Shown here: positions 19,680 through 28,720 of the stretch, one piece after another | How the letters are laid out: each line of letters begins with the position of its first letter | Position numbering within the stretch: position 1 is the first letter of the stretch | Assembly: GCF_000325665.1 (NCBI RefSeq) | Contig: NC_019908.1 | Location: 124,001 to 188,000 of the forward strand | Direction of reading: 5' to 3' | Length of the DNA stretch: 64,000 nucleotides | Source: Brachyspira pilosicoli P43/6/78 | GTDB taxonomy: Bacteria; Spirochaetota; Brachyspiria; Brachyspirales; Brachyspiraceae | The notes under the pieces: generated by a model | What the model was told of the DNA's origin: nothing | Databases searched by the model: none | The model's input: only the letters and a program-made list of their open reading frames with translations | Made by a program: the position numbers and the translations under genes

Positions 19680-21605
19680 GTGTTGGATAGCACTACAGTT
19701 TATGGCAATGTTAATGAGAATATTCTTGATTATTCTGCAATCTTAGAAGTTACTGTAAAAGATATACAAAATTTCTTAACAGAATTCGGAAGAGTTTACA
19801 GCTTTATAGGAGAGAAGTTTCCATTAATAGAACAAGAAATGAAAAATGAAAATGAGAAATCAATTTCTCTTTTAAGTTATTTTACAGAAAAAGATACTAA
19901 AAAAAACTTTTCTAGCGACTTCCAAGAAAACCAAGAAGATTTTTTTAAATCTTTTGATAGAATGCAGTCATTAATAAATCAAGATGATGTTTTATCAAAT
20001 TCTATTATTGAAGACGTTAATATTATTAGTAACGTAATGGACTCTATAGAAGAGATAAGAAAATTAGCAGATCAGATAAAGGTTTATTCTCTTAATGCTA
20101 TTATTATAGCTTCAAAATACGGTTCCGGCGGTAAGGCTTTTGGAGAAATATCAAAAAACATCATAAAAATGTCAGAAACTTCTAACGAACAAGCTGACCA
20201 GATGAATAGAATAGGGCAGGAATTATTCGTACAGTTTGATAGGTTTAAAGATGAGATATTAAAAACTAATGAGATGCAAAGAAGAAGCTTTAATATAATG
20301 AGAGAGCAATTAGATAAAGAGCATAATAATATGGTTAATTCTTTTGCTACTTTTTCTAATATGATTTCTGATATAATATCAAGAGTAGATAATAGCTATG
20401 ATTATATATTTGAAGTGATGATGATACTTCCGCAAGAAGATATTATTAGGCAGCAAACAGAACATATAATAGAATCTATAAAACATATTGTAGAAGAGAA
20501 TAGAAAGTTTATAGATGCTTATGGGAAGGAAGTAGTTGCTATAAATAATGCTGCAGAATTAGAAAATAATGAGTCTTTGGAGCATAAATTATTAGATTTG
20601 CTTACTTTTGATGATGTTGTTTTGAGTTTAATAATAGAAAATTTTAAATCCATACATAAAGAGATATTAGATAACAATGCTCGTATAAATGATAGTTTAA
20701 AAGGATTAAAAGAGAGCTTGCTTGATATATCATCAGATAGAAACACTATAGTTGAATATATGATAGGTGCTCAATCAGGCAAATCAGAGTTTCCTTTTAG
20801 TGTATCAGATTCTATATTTAATGAATATTTGGGTTTTATTAAACTTTATTTAGACAATTTCAAATTATTCTTAAGCAATAAACATAGAATATCAGATAAT
20901 AATGCCGGTATAATAGATTCAATAGAAGAGCTTGAAAATATGTTCTTAGAGACAAAAAACATTGCTAAGGCATTTAACTCTATTAACTTCTTAGCTAAAA
21001 TAGAATTAGAGAAAAATAGTGATATATTTAGCGATTCTCAAACATTTTCTATGGTTAGCGTTGAATCTATAGCTACAAATATTACGGATACTGTTGATGT
21101 TTGTTTGGAGAAATTTGAAAATATCAAAACTACAATATTTAGTGCTATTAATAAGTTTAAATTTAATATTAATCAGCAGTCTATAGAAAACTCATTTATA
21201 GAATCTATGATGGATAATATTTATAAACGTTTGGAAGAGTCTAAAACTATTATAGAAGATAATATTAAAGGTTTGGACACGCATGCTAAAGAGTTGTTTA
21301 ATTTAATAGAAAAAACTCTAATAGACTTAAGCTCTTTAACTACTCTCTTAACAAAGATTAATGAGATAATGGAAGTATTTAATAGAATGCGTGACATTAT
21401 AAGAAATAAGAAAAATGAATATTACAAGACTTTAAACATAGATAATTGGAAAATAGAAAGTGATAAATATATGGAAATAGTAAATTATTATACTATAAAG
21501 AAAGAAAGAACTATAGCGAACAGTATTTTATCTGGAGAAGAGGCATTAAATGTCGATATTAACATAGAAGAAGGTTCGGATAGTGGCGATTTTACATTAT
21601 TTTAG
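19680..21605 (+). CDS. Soluble MCP-like coiled-coil protein at the head of the che operon
   Basis: A 641-residue protein with no signal peptide or membrane segment. Residues about 121-175 align by eye, without gaps, to the tip of the methyl-accepting protein signalling domain: IRKLADQIKVYSLNA, then ASKYGSGGKAFGEISK and KMSETS correspond to the family's IADQTNLLALNA, AARAGE.GRGFAVVA and LAERS. Charged receptor residues are altered: the Glu after LNAA is Ile, the Arg of AARAG is Lys and the Glu of AGE is Ser. The rest is predicted helical coiled coil, including a second long helical region (about 290-600). The GTG start has GAGG 11 nt upstream. It could be a cytosolic sensor, an adaptor or a structural che protein; homology to MCPs is my reading, not a search result. 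Confidence 0.75.
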   Translation: MLDSTTVYGNVNENILDYSAILEVTVKDIQNFLTEFGRVYSFIGEKFPLIEQEMKNENEKSISLLSYFTEKDTKKNFSSDFQENQEDFFKSFDRMQSLINQDDVLSNSIIEDVNIISNVMDSIEEIRKLADQIKVYSLNAIIIASKYGSGGKAFGEISKNIIKMSETSNEQADQMNRIGQELFVQFDRFKDEILKTNEMQRRSFNIMREQLDKEHNNMVNSFATFSNMISDIISRVDNSYDYIFEVMMILPQEDIIRQQTEHIIESIKHIVEENRKFIDAYGKEVVAINNAAELENNESLEHKLLDLLTFDDVVLSLIIENFKSIHKEILDNNARINDSLKGLKESLLDISSDRNTIVEYMIGAQSGKSEFPFSVSDSIFNEYLGFIKLYLDNFKLFLSNKHRISDNNAGIIDSIEELENMFLETKNIAKAFNSINFLAKIELEKNSDIFSDSQTFSMVSVESIATNITDTVDVCLEKFENIKTTIFSAINKFKFNINQQSIENSFIESMMDNIYKRLEESKTIIEDNIKGLDTHAKELFNLIEKTLIDLSSLTTLLTKINEIMEVFNRMRDIIRNKKNEYYKTLNIDNWKIESDKYMEIVNYYTIKKERTIANSILSGEEALNVDINIEEGSDSGDFTLF

Positions 21606-21614
21606 GAGGTATTT

Positions 21615-21863
21615 ATGTCTGTTATAGAAATAGACGAAAATCTTAATATAAGAACTATGAGCAAATATTTTAAGAATGTTATAAAGGCAGCTAACTACAA
21701 TGAAGATACAACTATAAAATTTCCAGAAGGTAGTCATTTAGATTTAGCTGGCTTGCAAATACTTTATTCTATAAAAAAAGAACTTGATAAAAATCAAAAA
21801 AAACTTATAGTAGAAGGGTTAGATAATTCTTTTATAGAATATTTTAATATTGGAACCAAATAA
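21615..21863 (+). CDS. STAS-domain protein in the che operon
   Basis: An 82-residue single STAS domain (anti-sigma-antagonist fold). The family segment is HLDLAGLQILYSIKKELDKN; the Ser or Thr usually phosphorylated just before the AGLQ turn is Leu here, so phospho-switching by a SpoIIAB-type kinase is unlikely. GGAGG at 21605-21609 lies just before the ATG, 9 nt after the MCP-like gene. STAS proteins of this type occur beside CheA operons in several bacteria, with poorly known roles; a binding partner for the MCP-like protein or CheA is an inference from position. Confidence 0.82.
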   Translation: MSVIEIDENLNIRTMSKYFKNVIKAANYNEDTTIKFPEGSHLDLAGLQILYSIKKELDKNQKKLIVEGLDNSFIEYFNIGTK

Positions 21864-21903: not shown

Positions 21904-22272
21904 ATGGCTAAAACAATACTAATAGTAGACGATTCAAATACTGCTAGAGCATCTGTTGAGTATACTTTGAAGAAGGGGAGTTATGATGTAATTTCTGCTG
22001 ATGACGGTACTACTGGATTAGAAGCTGTAAATAAGGCTGCAAATATTGATATGATTATTACAGATTTGAATATGCCTAAGATGGATGGTATAGAGTTTAT
22101 TAAGAATGTTAGAAAATTTGATAAGTATAAATATACTCCTATACTTATGCTTACAACAGAATCTCAAGATGATAAGAAGATGGAAGGTAAGGCAGCAGGA
22201 GCTAGCGGTTGGTTAGTAAAACCTTTCAACCCTACACAGCTTTTAGATGTTGTTAAACGTTTTTTAAATTAA
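21904..22272 (+). CDS. cheY: Chemotaxis response regulator CheY
   Basis: A 122-residue single receiver domain. The acidic pocket is VDDSN, the phosphoacceptor Asp54 is in IITDLNMPKMDG, the conserved Thr is in MLTTES and the Lys in WLVKPFNP. CheA phosphorylates it and CheY-P binds the flagellar switch. The preceding gene is 40 nt away, cheA follows by 45 nt. The sequence SYDVISADDGTTGLEAV is close to the spirochaete/CheY3-like type; which CheY homologue controls the motor cannot be told from this window. Confidence 0.93.
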   Translation: MAKTILIVDDSNTARASVEYTLKKGSYDVISADDGTTGLEAVNKAANIDMIITDLNMPKMDGIEFIKNVRKFDKYKYTPILMLTTESQDDKKMEGKAAGASGWLVKPFNPTQLLDVVKRFLN

Positions 22273-22317: not shown

Positions 22318-24429
22318 ATGTTTGATAGTGATGAATTTATTTCGATATTTTTGAGTGAGGCTAATGAAATAGTTGAAGGACTTGAAAATGATTTAGTTTT
22401 GCTCGAAGATAATAAAAGTGATGAAGACCTTTTAAATAAAATATTTAGAAGTGCCCATACTTTAAAATCTTCTGCTGGTACTGTTGGTTTCACTACAATG
22501 AGTGAGTTAAACCACGTTGCAGAAAACTTATTGGAGAAGGTAAGAAGCGGTAAATTAGATGTTACACCGCAGATGATTACTGTTCTATTAGAGTTTTTGG
22601 ACACTGTAAAACTTATGCTTCAAAATATAGTAGATGGTGTTGGCGAAGCAGACGGCGTTACAAATATAGAAAGCTTAAAAGCTAAAATAAAAGCTATAGC
22701 TGAAGGAAATGATATAAATACTGTATCTGTAGAGAAAAAAGAAGAAGCACCTAAAACAGAGGAAAAACCTAAAGAAGAGAGTAAAGCATCTTCTTCAAAT
22801 AATATGTTTCATATTGAAATGATATTTAAACCTAGTATTTTTGACAATGGTATAGACCCTCTTATGTTTTTAAATGACCTTAAGGCTATAGGTACTGTTA
22901 GTAATTTAAAAATAGATATTAGTAATGTTCCTGCTATATCTGACTTAGAAGATCCTTATGCTTGTTACACTCAATTTTCATTGGATATTGAAACTGCTTC
23001 TACTATAGAGCAAGTTCAAAATATATTCTTATTTGTTATAGATGATAATGATATTAATATTACTGAGAAAGTAGAAGAAAAAGTTGAAGAAACTAAGGCT
23101 GCTGAAGAAAAAGTTGAAGAAAAGGCAGAAGAGAAAGCCGAAGAAAAACATGAAGAAGATAAGAAAGAAGAAGCTCATGATGATAAGGCTAAAGAAAATA
23201 AGGCAGCTCCTGCTTCTAAACCTACAGGAACTAAGGTTCAGGCTCCTTCTACTGTAAGGGTTGATATAAGAAAATTAGACAGCTTGATGAACTTGATTGG
23301 AGAGCTTGTTATAGCACAATCAAGAATAATGCAGCTAACACAAAATTTAGATATAGATAATGGCTTAAAAGAGGCAGTTAGTTCTATGGACAGAACCTCA
23401 AGACAAATACAGGAAGAGGTTATGAACATAAGAATGATGCCTATAGGACCTATATTTACACAATTCCATAGATATGTAAGAGACCTTAATTTGGAATTAA
23501 ACAAAGAAGTAAAATTAGTTCTTAAAGGTGAAACTACAGAGATAGATAAAAATATGTTGGAGCAATTATCTGACCCTCTTAAACATATTATTAGAAACTC
23601 TATGGACCATGGTATAGAAAAAACTAAAGAAGAGAGAATTGCAAGAGGAAAACCTGAGTTTGGTACTATTACAATGTCAGCAGCTCACCAAGAGGGACAT
23701 GTTGTTATAGAGGTGTCTGATGATGGTAATGGATTAAACAAAGAGAAAATATTTAACAAAGCTGTAGAAAAAGGTTTGTTATCAAAAGACGGCAATTACT
23801 CTGATGCTGAAATATATAGAACAATATTTAGCCCAGGTTTATCAACAGCAGAAAAAGTTACTGACATATCTGGAAGGGGTGTTGGTATGGACGTTGTTAG
23901 GGCTAATGTTGAAAAGATGAAAGGAAAGATTGAGATAAAGAGTGCCGAAGGAGTTGGAAGCACATTTATTATTAAACTTCCTTTAACTTTAGCTATTATA
24001 GAAGGTATTACTTTTGCTATAGGTGAACAGATTTATGTAATGCCTTTAATATCTATCATAGAGCAGATAAAAATTAAAAGCGACCAGGTTAAACCTTTTG
24101 AAGGCAAGGGAGAGATGATAAAAATCAGAGATGAATATTTACCTCTCATAAGACTTCACAAGGTATTTGAGATAGATACTCAAGTTAATGAGATAGATGA
24201 TGGTATAGTTGTAGTTGTTGAGGCAGGATATAGAAAATGTGCTATATTTGTAGATGAGTTACTTGATCAGCAGCAGGTTGTTATTAAGTCTTTGGACTCT
24301 GCTTTCAGCAAACATGCAGGAATTGCTGGGGGTACTATACTTGGAGATGGTAGAATAGCTCTTATTATAGATATACAGGGACTTGTTAATATATCTTTAC
24401 AGAATAAAGTTAATAATGGCGTTAAATAA
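22318..24429 (+). CDS. cheA: Chemotaxis histidine kinase CheA
   Basis: A 703-residue CheA. The HPt domain holds His47 in RSAHTLKSSAGTVGF. A second folded part follows (about 160-245, FHIEMIFKP to FVIDDNDI), then a long Glu/Lys/Ala linker (about 246-308) of repeated EEKVEEK/AEEKAEEK blocks. The dimerisation domain begins VRVDIRKLDSLMNLIGELVI, the ATPase has HIIRNSMDHGIE, VSDDGNGLN and FSPGLSTAEKVTDISGRGVG, and a CheW-like P5 domain closes the protein (about 560-700). It phosphorylates CheY and CheB. Starts at ATG 22318 after AGAGG at 22308-22312. Confidence 0.97.
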   Translation: MFDSDEFISIFLSEANEIVEGLENDLVLLEDNKSDEDLLNKIFRSAHTLKSSAGTVGFTTMSELNHVAENLLEKVRSGKLDVTPQMITVLLEFLDTVKLMLQNIVDGVGEADGVTNIESLKAKIKAIAEGNDINTVSVEKKEEAPKTEEKPKEESKASSSNNMFHIEMIFKPSIFDNGIDPLMFLNDLKAIGTVSNLKIDISNVPAISDLEDPYACYTQFSLDIETASTIEQVQNIFLFVIDDNDINITEKVEEKVEETKAAEEKVEEKAEEKAEEKHEEDKKEEAHDDKAKENKAAPASKPTGTKVQAPSTVRVDIRKLDSLMNLIGELVIAQSRIMQLTQNLDIDNGLKEAVSSMDRTSRQIQEEVMNIRMMPIGPIFTQFHRYVRDLNLELNKEVKLVLKGETTEIDKNMLEQLSDPLKHIIRNSMDHGIEKTKEERIARGKPEFGTITMSAAHQEGHVVIEVSDDGNGLNKEKIFNKAVEKGLLSKDGNYSDAEIYRTIFSPGLSTAEKVTDISGRGVGMDVVRANVEKMKGKIEIKSAEGVGSTFIIKLPLTLAIIEGITFAIGEQIYVMPLISIIEQIKIKSDQVKPFEGKGEMIKIRDEYLPLIRLHKVFEIDTQVNEIDDGIVVVVEAGYRKCAIFVDELLDQQQVVIKSLDSAFSKHAGIAGGTILGDGRIALIIDIQGLVNISLQNKVNNGVK

Positions 24430-24443
24430 TAAAGGATTTTAAT

Positions 24444-24977
24444 ATGTTGGATAATCAAAAAATTAATGCTAGTGAAATAGCACAGATTGGCGGTGTGGGT
24501 ATAGGTGCTGAAGAAAATGCTTCCACAGAGCCAAGTCAGCAATTTCTTGTTTTTAAGATAGACAACGAAGAATATGCTCTTGATGTGCTAAGTATAGAGG
24601 GTATAGTTGGTGTTACTACTATTACTCCTGTGCCTGGAAGTCCTAAATATATGAGAGGGCTTATTAATTTAAGAGGTAATATTTTACATATAGTTGATAT
24701 AAGAATGCGTTTTGGACTTGAAAGAAGAGATGACCGTTCTATAGAAAATGATGTTATTATAGTAATATCTACCTCTAATAGAAGATTTGGCATACTTGCA
24801 GATATGGTTTCTGATGTTATTACTGTTTATGAAAGTCAGATGACTGCTACTCCTATTGCTAATGTTAGCGGATTACAGATATCTAATGTTATTAGACTTG
24901 AAAATAAGATTATTATGGTTCTTCCTATAGAGGATATAGTAAAATCCAATGATGCTATAAGTAAGGCTATAGTTTGA
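24444..24977 (+). CDS. cheW: Chemotaxis coupling protein CheW
   Basis: A 177-residue single CheW domain coupling receptors to CheA. After a variable 30-residue N-terminus, the domain runs from FLVFKIDNEEYALDVLSIEG through PGSPKYMRGLINLRGNILHI and VDIRMRFGL to the final LPIEDIVK. The MRGLINLRG segment is the family hallmark. It lies 14 nt after cheA with AAAGGA upstream and 10 nt before cheR. Confidence 0.95.
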   Translation: MLDNQKINASEIAQIGGVGIGAEENASTEPSQQFLVFKIDNEEYALDVLSIEGIVGVTTITPVPGSPKYMRGLINLRGNILHIVDIRMRFGLERRDDRSIENDVIIVISTSNRRFGILADMVSDVITVYESQMTATPIANVSGLQISNVIRLENKIIMVLPIEDIVKSNDAISKAIV

Positions 24978-24987
24978 GGTTTTTTAT

Positions 24988-25833
24988 ATGAGTGAATTAA
25001 ATCTTGCACCTTTAACAGACAGTGAGTTTAATGAGTTAGTTAGAATTATTTATGATAAAACTCGTATACAAATGTCTGAACATAAAAGAGCTTTAGTTAC
25101 TTCTAGAATAAGTAAAAGAATTAGAGCTTTAAATATGTCTTCTTTTAAAGAGTATATAGACTATTTAAAAGGTGCTCCTGATGAAGAGGTTACTAATTTC
25201 ATCAATGCTGTTACTACAAATAAAACTGACTTCTTTAGAGAAAATAAACATTTTGAATATATGAAAACTACTTTTCTTCCAAATTGGGAAAAAAGCTACA
25301 AAGAAGGAAAAGTTAATAATTTAAGAATATGGTCTGCTGCTTGTTCTACAGGTGAGGAGCCTTATACTATTGCTATGACTCTTCATGATTATTTTGGAGA
25401 GAGATTTAATCATTATGATATAAAAATTTTAGCAAGCGATATAGATACTAATGTGCTTAGCCATGCATGTGCTGGAATATATAAAGAGGAGACTGTAGAA
25501 ACTATTCAAACTAATACTTTAAAAAAATATTTTCTTAAAGGTACTGGAAATAATGCTGGCCTTTATAAAGTGAAAAATATTTTGCAAAAATGTATATCTT
25601 TTAGACAGCTTAATTTTAAAGATGAAGATTTTGATATACATACTAAATTTGATTTAATATTTTGTAGAAATGTAATAATTTATTTTGATAAAGAGTTCCA
25701 AAAGGAATTATTTAATAAATTTTATAGATATATGAAAGAAGATAGTTATGTATTTATAGGGCATTCTGAAACATTGTTTGGTATTTCAGATTTATTTAAA
25801 TATATTTCTAGCAATATCTATAAAAAGATTTAA
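24988..25833 (+). CDS. cheR: Chemotaxis protein methyltransferase CheR
   Basis: A 281-residue SAM-dependent methyltransferase that methylates receptor glutamates. The N-terminal helical domain (about 10-80) contains SRISKRIRALNMSSFKEYID; NAVTTNKTDFFREN is the conserved family box; the SAM site is RIWSAACSTGEEPYTIAM; later ILASDIDTNVLSHA and FDLIFCRNVIIYFD are typical. No TPR extension is fused. It follows cheW by 10 nt with GAGG at its start. Confidence 0.96.
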   Translation: MSELNLAPLTDSEFNELVRIIYDKTRIQMSEHKRALVTSRISKRIRALNMSSFKEYIDYLKGAPDEEVTNFINAVTTNKTDFFRENKHFEYMKTTFLPNWEKSYKEGKVNNLRIWSAACSTGEEPYTIAMTLHDYFGERFNHYDIKILASDIDTNVLSHACAGIYKEETVETIQTNTLKKYFLKGTGNNAGLYKVKNILQKCISFRQLNFKDEDFDIHTKFDLIFCRNVIIYFDKEFQKELFNKFYRYMKEDSYVFIGHSETLFGISDLFKYISSNIYKKI

Positions 25834-25849: not shown

Positions 25850-26443
25850 ATGTTAGATTTTCCATCAGCTGCCAACAGCAATTTTAAAAGAATAACAATA
25901 TATATAGGCGGTTATTATGCCTCTAGACAGCCTGCGGTAATAAAAACAGTTTTGGGAAGTTGTATTTCGGTTTGTTTGTTTGAGAATAATTTGAAATTTG
26001 GCGGCATGAATCACTTTATGCTCCCTGAAATGAAAGAATGGGAGAATCCTGAAGATGATTATAATTATACTAGATATGGTCTTTATGCTATGGAGGTGTT
26101 AATAAACGAAATAATTAAACTTGGAGGAAAAAAGGCTAATCTTACTGCTAAAATATTTGGAGGCGGACACGTTTTGACTGGAATGACTAGTAATGTGCTT
26201 CAAGTACCAGATAAAAATATTAGATTCGCTAGAAAATTTTTAGCTGATGAAAATATCCCTATTATTAGTGAAGATGTTGGAGGCTCTTGGCCTAGAAAGG
26301 TGTTTTTTTTCAACACTGAAAATAGAGTACTTATGAAAAAGATTGAAGGTAAAACTAAAGAGTTCTCTGCTGAACAAGAAATTAAGTATTCTAAAAACTT
26401 ACAACAAAAAATTGAAGAGAAATCTGATATTACATTATTTTAA
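25850..26443 (+). CDS. cheD: Chemoreceptor glutamine deamidase CheD
   Basis: A 197-residue CheD, which deamidates receptor glutamines and in some species partners with CheC. Catalytic residues are visible in TVLGSCISVCLFE (Thr33, Cys38) and GGMNHFMLPE (His55); the conserved AKIFGGGHVL follows near residue 100. The C-terminal 25 residues (KTKEFSAEQEIKYSKNLQQK) are charged and extra to the core. It sits between cheR and cheB. With only one soluble degenerate receptor in the window, its substrates are encoded elsewhere. Confidence 0.95.
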   Translation: MLDFPSAANSNFKRITIYIGGYYASRQPAVIKTVLGSCISVCLFENNLKFGGMNHFMLPEMKEWENPEDDYNYTRYGLYAMEVLINEIIKLGGKKANLTAKIFGGGHVLTGMTSNVLQVPDKNIRFARKFLADENIPIISEDVGGSWPRKVFFFNTENRVLMKKIEGKTKEFSAEQEIKYSKNLQQKIEEKSDITLF

Positions 26444-26460: not shown

Positions 26461-27594
26461 ATGGCTAATAAAATTAAAGTTTTATCCATTGATGATAGTG
26501 CATTGATAAGACAATTGCTTACAAAAATTGTTAATTCTGACCCTGATTTGGAAATGGTTGCCACTGCTGCTAACCCTATACTTGCAGAGGCTAAATTAAA
26601 AACTATAAAACCTGATATTATTACTTTAGATATAGAAATGCCTGAAATGGACGGTATTACTTATCTTAAAAAACTTATGATTAATAATCCTATTCCTGTA
26701 ATAATGTTTAGTTCTTTGCTTGATAAACATAGAGAATTAGCATTAGATGCTTTAAATATTGGTGCTTTTGATTATGTTATTAAGCCTTCTGCTAATGTAA
26801 GAGGCGGTGTTGAGGAACTAGCTACAGATTTAGTTGAAAAGATAAAAAACGCTTATAACAACAGAGCTAAGTTTTATAAAAAGCATGGTGTTGCTATGCC
26901 TACAGAAACTACTACTAATATTACTCATAATAGAGTTGTGGTAGAAGCTCCTAAAACTTCAGGATTTAAAGTTTATCCAAAAAATAATGCTGATATTATA
27001 CTTCCGCTTGTACCTTCTAGAGAAGTTGCTATGGATAAAATTATACTTATAGGCTCTTCTACAGGCGGTACTGAGGCTTTGATAGAATGTTTAAAAAATG
27101 TTACACCTTCTGCTCCTCCTATAGTAATAGCTCAGCACATGCCTGAACATTTTACTACTTCTTTTGCTAGGAGATTGAATACTGTATTAAAAATAGAAGT
27201 TTTTGAATCTGAAGATGGTATGAGTATAGGACGCGGTCAGGCAGTACTTGCAAGAGGCGGAAAGCATACTATGATAAAAGTTAAAAATGGAAAGTATTAT
27301 ATTGAAGTTGTAGATGGTGAGCCTGTTACTAGACATAAACCTTCTGTAGATGTACTTTTTAGAAGCGGTGCTGTATATGCTAAAAATAAAGCTATAGGTA
27401 TCATACTTACTGGAATGGGTGATGATGGTGCTAATGGTATGAAAGAAATGAAAGATGCCGGTGCTTATAACATTGCTCAAAACGAAGAGACTTGTACTGT
27501 TTTTGGTATGCCAAGAGAGGCTATTGCTAGAGGCGGTGTAGATGAGATACTTCCGCTTGATAGAATATTAGCCGCTGCTCTTAAAAAAGCATAA
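26461..27594 (+). CDS. cheB: Chemotaxis protein-glutamate methylesterase CheB
   Basis: A 377-residue CheB with an N-terminal receiver domain (Asp57 in IITLDIEMPEMDGI, Lys in DYVIKPSA) and a C-terminal methylesterase domain. The serine nucleophile is in IGSSTGGTEAL, the His in AQHMPEHFTTSFARRLN and the Asp in ILTGMGDDGANGM. It removes receptor methyl groups when phosphorylated by CheA. It follows cheD by 17 nt; the next gene starts 7 nt after its stop. Confidence 0.96.
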   Translation: MANKIKVLSIDDSALIRQLLTKIVNSDPDLEMVATAANPILAEAKLKTIKPDIITLDIEMPEMDGITYLKKLMINNPIPVIMFSSLLDKHRELALDALNIGAFDYVIKPSANVRGGVEELATDLVEKIKNAYNNRAKFYKKHGVAMPTETTTNITHNRVVVEAPKTSGFKVYPKNNADIILPLVPSREVAMDKIILIGSSTGGTEALIECLKNVTPSAPPIVIAQHMPEHFTTSFARRLNTVLKIEVFESEDGMSIGRGQAVLARGGKHTMIKVKNGKYYIEVVDGEPVTRHKPSVDVLFRSGAVYAKNKAIGIILTGMGDDGANGMKEMKDAGAYNIAQNEETCTVFGMPREAIARGGVDEILPLDRILAAALKKA

Positions 27595-27601
27595 AAATTA
27601 T

Positions 27602-28390
27602 ATGAATAACGACATATATGATTATATAAATAAATGGGTGGGTAATACTACCATTTATCCAAGATACAAAATTGATAAAGCTTTAGATTTTGTAACTAAT
27701 ATTATAAATAACAATAATGTATCTATAATTGCTACTGGTGCTAAAAGAAACAATACTAATGTTAGTTATATGGAGTATCTCAATTTATTTTTAATAACTG
27801 ATAGTAATAGCAAAGATACTAGAGTTTTTAAAAAAGATATTTCAAAGATATTAGAAAAAGAAAATATAGAATATAATGATATATTAGATTCTCTTATTAT
27901 TGTTTATGATAAAGAGAAGATTGTATTAAGACCAAGTTTCAAAGTTGAAGAAGAGAACAAAAAGATAGAAGGTGCTTTAATTACTTCTTCTGACGGAGAA
28001 AATAATATATATTATCCCAAATTAGACAATAAAAATTTTGATAAAAAAGAATATGAATGTAAAGATAATTTTATCAATTTAATTAGAATATTCAAATACA
28101 TATTTCAAAGTTTCAATGGCGAGATAAAAGAGTTAAATGAGTTTAATTATGAGCTTATTGAAGCTTTGATATGGAATATACCTAATGAATATTTTAATTT
28201 TAAAGATTATGATGATGGATTATTAAAAGCTATAAGTTATTTATATGACAAAATTGCCTCTGAAGATTATATTGAACTTTCTGAGATTAATGATATTAAG
28301 GTTTTATTTTCAACTAAAAATAATATTAACAGAAAAAATGTATTAGTGGCATTATATAAACTAAGAAAATACATAGAAGAGAATATGTAA
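27602..28390 (+). CDS. Probable catalytically inactive nucleotidyltransferase-fold protein ending the che operon
   Basis: A 262-residue protein, 7 nt after cheB and probably translated with it. By eye it follows the layout of bacterial CD-NTase-like nucleotidyltransferases: an N-terminal YINKWVG helix; the loop ATGAKRNNTNV (residues 44-54), matching the family's QGSYRNNTNV; RPSFKVE (110-116), matching VPAFEYR; an EGA/DGENNIYYPK stretch; FINLIRIFKYI (157-167), matching FKRIVRILKRL; and LIEALIWNIPNEYF (185-198), matching LIECLVWNVPNxxF. The family's catalytic D-x-D, expected just after NNTNV, reads Y59-L-N61, and the third Asp before RPSF is also absent. I infer a pseudoenzyme that may bind a nucleotide or a protein partner in chemotaxis. 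The fold assignment rests on remembered family patterns and is unverified. Confidence 0.65.
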   Translation: MNNDIYDYINKWVGNTTIYPRYKIDKALDFVTNIINNNNVSIIATGAKRNNTNVSYMEYLNLFLITDSNSKDTRVFKKDISKILEKENIEYNDILDSLIIVYDKEKIVLRPSFKVEEENKKIEGALITSSDGENNIYYPKLDNKNFDKKEYECKDNFINLIRIFKYIFQSFNGEIKELNEFNYELIEALIWNIPNEYFNFKDYDDGLLKAISYLYDKIASEDYIELSEINDIKVLFSTKNNINRKNVLVALYKLRKYIEENM

Positions 28391-28514
28391 GAGGTTTTTT
28401 AATATTTCTTGTTTTATAAAAATTCAATATTTTTAGCATATACTTAGTATTTTTATCTAAAAGCATAGATATTATTTTATATATATTTTTATAATACATA
28501 TAAAATTAAATAAC

Positions 28515-28569
28515 TTGCACTTTTTGGTTCTTTTGACGAAGTCCGCACAGCGAAGGCGGGAAAAAGAAC
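28515..28569 (-). repeat. GC-rich hairpin repeat, short unit
   Basis: On the minus strand it reads GTTCTTTTTCCCGCC, a GC-rich loop, then AAAAGAACCAAAAAGTGCA. The stem is GTTCTTTT with AAAAGAAC. A shorter relative is at 57269-57304 (CAACTTTTTCCCGC, then AAAAAGTTGCAAAAAGTGC), whose stem carries different but still pairing bases. Confidence 0.65.
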
Positions 28570-28591
28570 AATAAAATTTTTAGTTTCTTTA

Positions 28592-28654
28592 TTTGTGGGG
28601 ACTAGCCCCAACACCCCCAGTTCTTTTTTAGTATAAAAGAACCAAAAGAACTGC
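28592..28654 (+). repeat. GC-rich intergenic hairpin repeat, copy 2 (internally deleted)
   Basis: Starts TTTGTGGGGACTAGCC like copy 1, lacks the middle hairpin, continues ACACCCCCAGTTCTTTT and ends AAAAGAACCAAAAGAACTGC. The stem here is GTTCTTTT/AAAAGAAC, where copies 1 and 3 have CTTCTTT/AAAGAAG: both sides changed, keeping the pairing. Confidence 0.7.
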
Positions 28655-28720
28655 ATTTGAGTAAATATAGATTTTTATGTATAATTATTAAATCAATATG
28701 CACTTTGGAGAAAACAAAAA

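What the first reader, a model, noticed from the sequence alone, without database searches (positions are those of the whole stretch)
27602..28390. A nucleotidyltransferase-like pseudoenzyme at the end of the chemotaxis operon
The last che gene is 7 nt behind cheB and keeps the framework of CD-NTase-like nucleotidyltransferases (TGAKRNNTNV, RPSFKV, FINLIRIFKYI, LIEALIWNIPNEYF), but the catalytic Asp-x-Asp reads Y59-L-N61 and the third Asp is missing too. The Gly of the G-S loop is kept but the Ser is Ala. CD-NTase relatives are known from cyclic-nucleotide defence signalling and related systems; I know of no described link to CheA/CheY. It may bind a nucleotide as a sensor or act as a protein adaptor tied to CheB/CheD.
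Basis: partly seen in the sequence, partly recalled or inferred. Interest (0 to 1): 0.78.

Follow-up and report, generated by a model that had tools for sequence, protein, structure and literature searches.

The report
Dead immune-type cyclase in chemotaxis operon
In gut spirochaetes of the genus Brachyspira, a relative of the bacterial antiviral alarm enzymes (CdnE-type cyclic-nucleotide synthases) has lost its catalytic residues and has been kept under selection as the last gene of the main chemotaxis operon, directly behind cheB, which suggests that an immune-type enzyme was recycled as a non-catalytic chemotaxis accessory.

Summary
The ORF at 27602-28390 (262 aa) starts 7 nt behind cheB and is homologous to clade-E CD-NTases (PADLOC cyclase models, E=1.4e-18; PDB EfCdnE and LpCdnE). 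An AlphaFold model matches LpCdnE-UTP (TM 0.84). A model built from orthologues only also finds CdnE structures first.

All three metal ligands are gone in all 21 orthologues compared (Y59, N61/S and V108 or another hydrophobic residue). Most base and phosphate contacts and the (R/Q)xW donor motif are gone too. Only the loop Gly and the phosphate Lys (K165) are invariant.

The gene lies 1-8 nt behind cheB in every intact Brachyspira copy measured. Its divergence tracks that of cheB (Mantel r=0.91), with dN/dS about 0.19. A sister genus carries a diverged CD-NTase in the same slot: it has lost the first and third Asp but keeps the second Asp and the donor motif. The gene is absent without trace from three Brachyspira species. 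No other CD-NTase was found in the genus.

Best reading: a clade-E CD-NTase captured behind cheB in the family ancestor, now a non-catalytic protein adaptor or regulator coupled to CheB. Partner and biochemical role are inferred; a nucleotide-sensing role stays open.

The parts
27602..28390 (+). cheB-linked pseudo-CD-NTase (262 aa), clade-E CdnE-like, all three metal ligands lost
   Evidence: ORF; PADLOC Cyclase E=1.4e-18; PDB CdnE; AlphaFold + Foldseek TM 0.84 to LpCdnE-UTP; contact table
27734..27784 (+). codons 45-61: former G-S loop and DxD (TGAKRNNTNVSYMEYLN), with G46 and A47 at the GS site and Y59 and N61 at the two Asp sites
   Evidence: alignment to 19 canonical sequences and hhalign
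27914..27934 (+). codons 105-111 EKIVLRP; V108 sits where the third catalytic Asp should be
28094..28096 (+). codon 165, Lys equivalent to LpCdnE K201 (donor gamma-phosphate), invariant in 21 of 21 orthologues and in the sister genus
   Evidence: LpCdnE contact from PMC10442399
28268..28327 (+). codons 223-242, most conserved block (YIELSEINDIKVLFSTKNNI), with the lost (R/Q)xW donor motif at 240-242 (now N-N-I)
26461..27594 (+). cheB, constant upstream neighbour, gap 7 nt
   Evidence: Pfam CheB_methylest 3e-59 and Response_reg; spacing
25850..26443 (+). cheD
   Evidence: Pfam CheD 2e-29
24988..25833 (+). cheR
   Evidence: Pfam CheR 3.5e-61
24444..24977 (+). cheW
   Evidence: Pfam CheW 3e-30
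22318..24429 (+). cheA
   Evidence: Pfam Hpt, H-kinase_dim, HATPase_c, CheW
21904..22272 (+). cheY-type receiver
   Evidence: Pfam Response_reg 1.6e-27
21615..21863 (+). STAS-like protein of the same operon
   Evidence: Pfam STAS 4e-4, below its curated cut-off
19680..21605 (+). 641-aa protein at the head of the operon, weak MCP-signal match
   Evidence: Pfam MCPsignal 4.7e-6, below its curated cut-off

Best explanation
The gene encodes a domesticated clade-E CD-NTase pseudoenzyme. An ancestral CdnE-type synthase gene became fixed directly behind cheB in an ancestor of the family Brachyspiraceae. It lost its metal-binding triad and later, in Brachyspira, its base-recognition residues. It is now kept as a non-catalytic accessory of the main Che pathway, made in step with CheB by tight (probably translational) coupling and acting by protein contacts, most likely with CheB or another adaptation protein (CheD, CheR) or with the CheA/CheW array. 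It would work the way the NTase-fold proteins MiD49/51 and OASL work: the fold without the reaction. Shown: homology, predicted fold, loss of the triad and of nucleotide contacts in all orthologues, constant position, purifying selection, vertical co-inheritance with cheB. Inferred: loss of activity (from the triad), participation in chemotaxis (from the operon), the protein-adaptor role, and CheB as first-choice partner. The confidence given is for the whole statement; for 'CdnE-fold pseudoenzyme fixed behind cheB' alone it would be about 0.93.
For: Family: PADLOC cyclase models in 16 of 16 orthologues, PDB CdnE hits, hhalign probability 95% to canonical CdnEs, Foldseek top hits all CdnE from the orthologue-only model (E=2.7e-10) and from the mixed-alignment model (pLDDT 87, pTM 0.84; TM 0.84, E=9e-14). 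Catalysis: D65, D67 and D139 of LpCdnE become Y (21/21), N or S (21/21) and V/A/M/L/I (21/21); of the tabulated nucleotide contacts only G52 and K201 are invariant. Maintenance: dN/dS median 0.19, range 0.05-0.45, against CheB 0.056. Position: found in 23 of 26 Brachyspira genomes, directly behind cheB wherever the neighbourhood was read, gap 1-8 nt in 23 intact copies, Mantel r 0.91 with CheB distances; downstream neighbours differ (tsaD or another gene), so only cheB adjacency is constant. Same slot in a sister genus that branches deepest in the family; its protein groups with the Brachyspira ones, 100% UFBoot. Conservation is highest in the C-terminal helical part (codons 138-172: 21/35 invariant; 223-242: 15/20), lower around the former active site, which points to a preserved surface rather than a preserved pocket. 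Precedents: MiD49/51 lack catalytic residues and recruit Drp1 (PMC6355003); OASL is inactive yet functional (PMC4446440).
Against: No interaction, expression or phenotype data. No Che residues co-vary with presence or absence beyond two isolated sites. The gene is missing from three Brachyspira species and from genus g18 although their che operons are intact, so it is not essential for chemotaxis in general. One species has a one-base frameshift in an A tract. It evolves about three times faster than CheB by dN/dS. Long branches may inflate the grouping with the sister-genus gene.
Confidence: 0.58

Rival explanations
1. Nucleotide sensor: the protein cannot catalyse but still binds a nucleotide or cyclic nucleotide in the former donor pocket and passes that signal to CheB or CheA, tuning adaptation to the energy or stress state.
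For: K165 (donor gamma-phosphate Lys), the loop Gly and loop residues K48, R49, N50 and T52 are invariant. MiD51 lacks the catalytic residues yet binds ADP (PMC6355003). The sister-genus protein keeps Ser53, Asn173, Ser220 and QxW equivalents, so a binding stage may have preceded.
Against: Q51, N59, K125, N173, S220 and the (R/Q)xW motif are lost or variable in Brachyspira, and Ser53 is Ala in half of the orthologues. Without Asp ligands there is no Mg bridge to the triphosphate. No other CD-NTase that could supply a cyclic nucleotide was found in the genus.
Confidence: 0.24
2. Defence element or decoy: a phage sensor or anti-CBASS decoy that merely rides in the che operon.
For: All sequence relatives are defence cyclases; presence is patchy (3 of 26 Brachyspira and 2 of 2 g18 genomes lack it).
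Against: No effector next to it; vertical inheritance with cheB; same slot in two genera; no relatives found in phage or viral-contig collections and only a weak, distant match in plasmids. Defence genes usually move.
Confidence: 0.08
3. Decaying passenger: a former CBASS cyclase gene that is simply being lost.
For: Three genomes lack it, one has a frameshift, and it evolves faster than the che genes.
Against: dN/dS 0.05-0.45 in every pair tested, open frame in all but one species, and lineage-wide invariant new residues (YMEYL; YPKLDN[KR]NFDKKE; SEINDIKVxFS) that canonical enzymes do not have.
Confidence: 0.05
4. Still an enzyme with a rearranged or metal-independent active site.
For: Invariant E58, Y59 and near-invariant N61 at the old site; some supposed pseudoenzymes in other families have turned out to be active (established knowledge).
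Against: No acidic residue at any of the three positions; acceptor lid Asn and donor motif are lost as well.
Confidence: 0.04

Closest known systems
Clade-E CD-NTases EfCdnE, LpCdnE, ClCdnE (PDB 7x4c, 7x4f/7x4q, 7x4a; PMC10442399)
   Same: Same fold over the whole chain (TM 0.84), conserved loop Gly, phosphate Lys, C-terminal helical domain and EIN-I-LF block.
   Different: No Asp triad, no (R/Q)xW donor motif, no acceptor Asn, shortened segment after the second strand, no CBASS effector, chromosomal che operon.
MiD49/MiD51
   Same: NTase-fold proteins without catalytic residues that act as adaptors.
   Different: Eukaryotic, mitochondrial; partner Drp1; MiD51 keeps ADP binding; not an orthologue.
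OASL
   Same: Inactive member of a nucleotide-second-messenger synthase family with an incomplete triad and a retained function.
   Different: Animal innate immunity; binds dsRNA. The Brachyspira proteins tested are acidic (pI about 5.0-5.5), which does not favour a nucleic-acid groove.
DncV/3'3'-cGAMP effect on V. cholerae chemotaxis (PMC9813507 citing Davies et al. 2012)
   Same: A CD-NTase connected with chemotaxis.
   Different: An active enzyme acts through its product; no operon linkage to cheB and no pseudoenzyme.

Membership tests
CD-NTase superfamily, clade E (CdnE) | Sequence profile match | tested here: met
   PADLOC Cyclase E=1.4e-18, 16/16 orthologues; PDB CdnE; hhalign 95%
CD-NTase superfamily, clade E (CdnE) | NTase fold with C-terminal helical domain | tested here: met
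   AlphaFold model pLDDT 87, TM 0.84 to LpCdnE-UTP; orthologue-only model also finds CdnE first
CD-NTase superfamily, clade E (CdnE) | G-S loop | tested here: inconclusive
   Gly in 21/21, Ser in 10/21, Ala in 11/21
CD-NTase superfamily, clade E (CdnE) | Three acidic metal ligands | tested here: not met
   Y, N/S and a hydrophobic residue in 21/21 orthologues; sister genus P, D, N
CD-NTase superfamily, clade E (CdnE) | (R/Q)xW donor motif and acceptor Asn of cyclic di-pyrimidine synthases (PMC10442399) | tested here: not met
   NN followed by I, L or M; acceptor Asn replaced by Y/F/D. Sister genus keeps QKW and the Asn
CD-NTase superfamily, clade E (CdnE) | Synthesis of a cyclic or linear oligonucleotide | not testable with these tools
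   Needs purified protein
CBASS defence system | Adjacent effector (Cap) gene | tested here: not met
   Neighbours are cheB and tsaD or another unrelated gene
Chemotaxis (che) operon component | Constant co-directional position in the operon across species | tested here: met
   1-8 nt behind cheB in 23 intact copies; same slot in a sister genus
Chemotaxis (che) operon component | Physical or genetic role in chemotaxis | not testable with these tools
   No interaction or mutant data

The most novel reading that the evidence does not exclude
An immune-type nucleotide-second-messenger synthase was captured into a bacterial chemotaxis pathway and turned into a nucleotide-responsive, non-catalytic regulator of CheB-dependent adaptation, linking cell nucleotide state (or a leftover defence signal) directly to behaviour.
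Probability: 0.2. Interest if true: 0.9.

Novelty: new variant of a known kind. Interest (0 to 1): 0.72.

Why it matters
Bacterial CD-NTases are known mainly as antiviral alarm enzymes. A lineage that has fixed an inactive one inside its main chemotaxis operon, with a sister genus that retains part of the active site, would be a bacterial counterpart of MiD49/51 and OASL and a clear case of domestication of a defence enzyme. It adds a possible unrecognised component of spirochaete chemotaxis, in organisms where chemotaxis matters for colonisation. I found no description of it in the papers I could search.

Tried and rejected
Pfam found nothing. Pfam SMODS found no match in any of 26 Brachyspira genomes. 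tblastn of the protein in phages: none; plasmids: one weak distant hit. Viral-contig scan with the orthologue alignment: none. A weak second hit in G022 (L024/L048) was read and is not a CD-NTase. Relics of the gene in the three Brachyspira species that lack it: none convincing; the short AT-rich matches are noise, and in G009 a flavodoxin-like ORF occupies the slot. Che-protein sites that track presence or absence: only two isolated sites, no partner signal. A terminator behind the gene: none by consensus scan. Rfam: none. The first AlphaFold model, from orthologues only, was mediocre (pLDDT 70.6, pTM 0.53); the second used canonical CdnE sequences in the alignment and could lean towards that fold, so both Foldseek results are reported.

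Full report
OBSERVATION. The ORF at 27602-28390 (+) encodes 262 aa. cheB ends at 27594, 7 nt upstream. The genes before it are confirmed by Pfam as cheY, cheA, cheW, cheR, cheD and cheB, with a weak STAS and a weak MCP-signal protein at the head. The window lies in a 2,555,556-base single-contig genome; close relatives carry the name Brachyspira pilosicoli in the named collection.

FAMILY. Pfam is silent, but six PADLOC oligonucleotide-cyclase models match (best 1.4e-18), NCBIfam CBASS_cyclase_a and DS2_2_antiphage match weakly, and phmmer finds EfCdnE and LpCdnE in the PDB. All 16 orthologues in alignment A4 match cyclase models. An independent hhalign comparison of the orthologue alignment with canonical plasmid-borne CdnEs gives 95% probability. 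An AlphaFold model from orthologues only is of middling quality (pLDDT 70.6, pTM 0.53), yet its best Foldseek matches in the PDB are all CdnE structures (E=2.7e-10). With canonical sequences added the model is good (pLDDT 87, pTM 0.84) and matches LpCdnE-UTP with TM 0.84, E=9e-14. The second result could be helped by the added sequences; the first is not.

ACTIVE SITE. LpCdnE contacts are described in PMC10442399. On an L-INS-i alignment with 19 canonical sequences: catalytic D65, D67 and D139 are Y, N (one S) and V/A/M/L/I in all 21 Brachyspira orthologues. Acceptor Q51 is T or S, acceptor N173 is Y/F/D, donor-phosphate S53 is A (11) or S (10), N59 is N (7) or D (14), S220 is variable, K125 is lost, and the donor motif (R/Q)xW is N-N-(I/L/M). 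Only G52 and K201 (here G46 and K165) are invariant, along with loop residues K48, R49, N50 and T52.

DISTRIBUTION. The gene is in 23 of 26 Brachyspira genomes, and wherever the neighbourhood was read it lies directly behind cheB. In 23 intact copies the gap to cheB is 1-8 nt; a 24th copy has a one-base slip in an A tract. Downstream genes differ between clades (tsaD, or a 695-aa protein that I take for a glutamine synthetase), so cheB is the only constant neighbour. Distances between orthologues track CheB distances (Mantel r 0.91, 0 of 2000 permutations). dN/dS (Nei-Gojobori) is 0.05-0.45, median 0.19, against 0.056 for CheB. The gene is therefore inherited with cheB and under purifying selection.

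SISTER GENUS. A genome of another genus in the family (G148) has a CD-NTase gene in the same slot, with an ATG 10 nt behind cheB. The gene runs off its contig; a matching C-terminal part begins another contig. It matches PDLC00801 with E=4e-31 and EfCdnE with E=5e-18. It has P, D and N at the three acidic positions and keeps the Ser of the G-S loop, the acceptor Asn, Ser220 and QKW. In a tree of concatenated Che proteins this genus branches deepest in the family, genus g18 (no gene) is sister to Brachyspira, and the three Brachyspira species without the gene fall in two places. The simplest history is one capture in the family ancestor and at least three losses. The CD-NTase tree puts the sister-genus protein with the Brachyspira ones at 100% UFBoot, though both are long branches. 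The slot in G148 plus the retained donor motif look like an earlier stage of the same degeneration; this is inference.

ABSENCE OF A CBASS CONTEXT. No CBASS effector lies next to the gene, and no second CD-NTase was found in the genus with three models. Within the sampled Spirochaetota (393 genomes) only three genera carry a match at E<=1e-8. The phage and viral collections gave no relative and plasmids one weak distant match. The canonical plasmid relatives sit beside patatin-like phospholipase or small hypothetical genes, as CBASS cyclases do.

MECHANISM. Conservation is concentrated in the C-terminal helical part (codons 138-172: 21/35 invariant; 223-242: 15/20 invariant) rather than around the former pocket, and the new invariant motifs (YMEYL, YPKLDN[KR]NFDKKE, SEINDIKVxFS) are absent from canonical enzymes. 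I read this as a preserved protein-binding surface. Tight coupling to cheB suggests fixed stoichiometry with CheB. The best-supported explanation is a non-catalytic adaptor or regulator in the adaptation branch of chemotaxis; nucleotide sensing through K165 and the loop is the main rival. MiD49/51 and OASL show that an NTase fold can work without catalysis.

NOVELTY. Literature searches for CD-NTase with chemotaxis, inactive or pseudo CD-NTases, and CBASS with Brachyspira gave nothing on this gene. The B. pilosicoli genome paper lists the che cluster without mentioning it (PMC2897892). The searches cover open-licence papers only. There is a described link between a CD-NTase product and chemotaxis in V. 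cholerae (PMC9813507). I class the find as a new variant of a known kind: a dead CdnE fixed in a che operon.

CAVEATS. No experiment; the role in chemotaxis rests on genomic position and selection. The partner is a guess. Other phyla could not be scanned for the same arrangement. Species names for G handles are known only where the named collection gave them.

Noticed in passing
window 28510-28660: The gap between this gene and tsaD holds a roughly 150-bp interspersed repeat with a perfect 13-nt terminal inverted repeat (TTTTGGTTCTTTT); the tool lists 55 full or partial matches across the genome. It looks like a MITE or other small mobile or structural repeat.
   Followed up: partly
L022 positions 1510-1520 (G012): The orthologue in one species has a one-base shorter A tract (A7 against A8) that breaks the frame near codon 28; it could be a sequencing error, a real loss, or phase variation.
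   Followed up: partly
L042 near 9690 (G009): In a species without the gene, a truncated or frameshifted flavodoxin-like ORF occupies the slot behind cheB.
   Followed up: partly
L041 8613-10061 (G021): A 1449-nt stretch without long ORFs follows cheB in another species that lacks the gene; no relic of it was found.
   Followed up: partly
window 19680-21863: The che operon begins with a 641-aa protein with only a weak MCP-signal match and a small STAS-like protein, both conserved through the family and both below Pfam cut-offs.
   Followed up: no
L005 and L023 (G002): One MAG carries two different orthologues on two contigs, each behind a cheB; with 7% contamination this is probably two species in one bin.
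   Followed up: no
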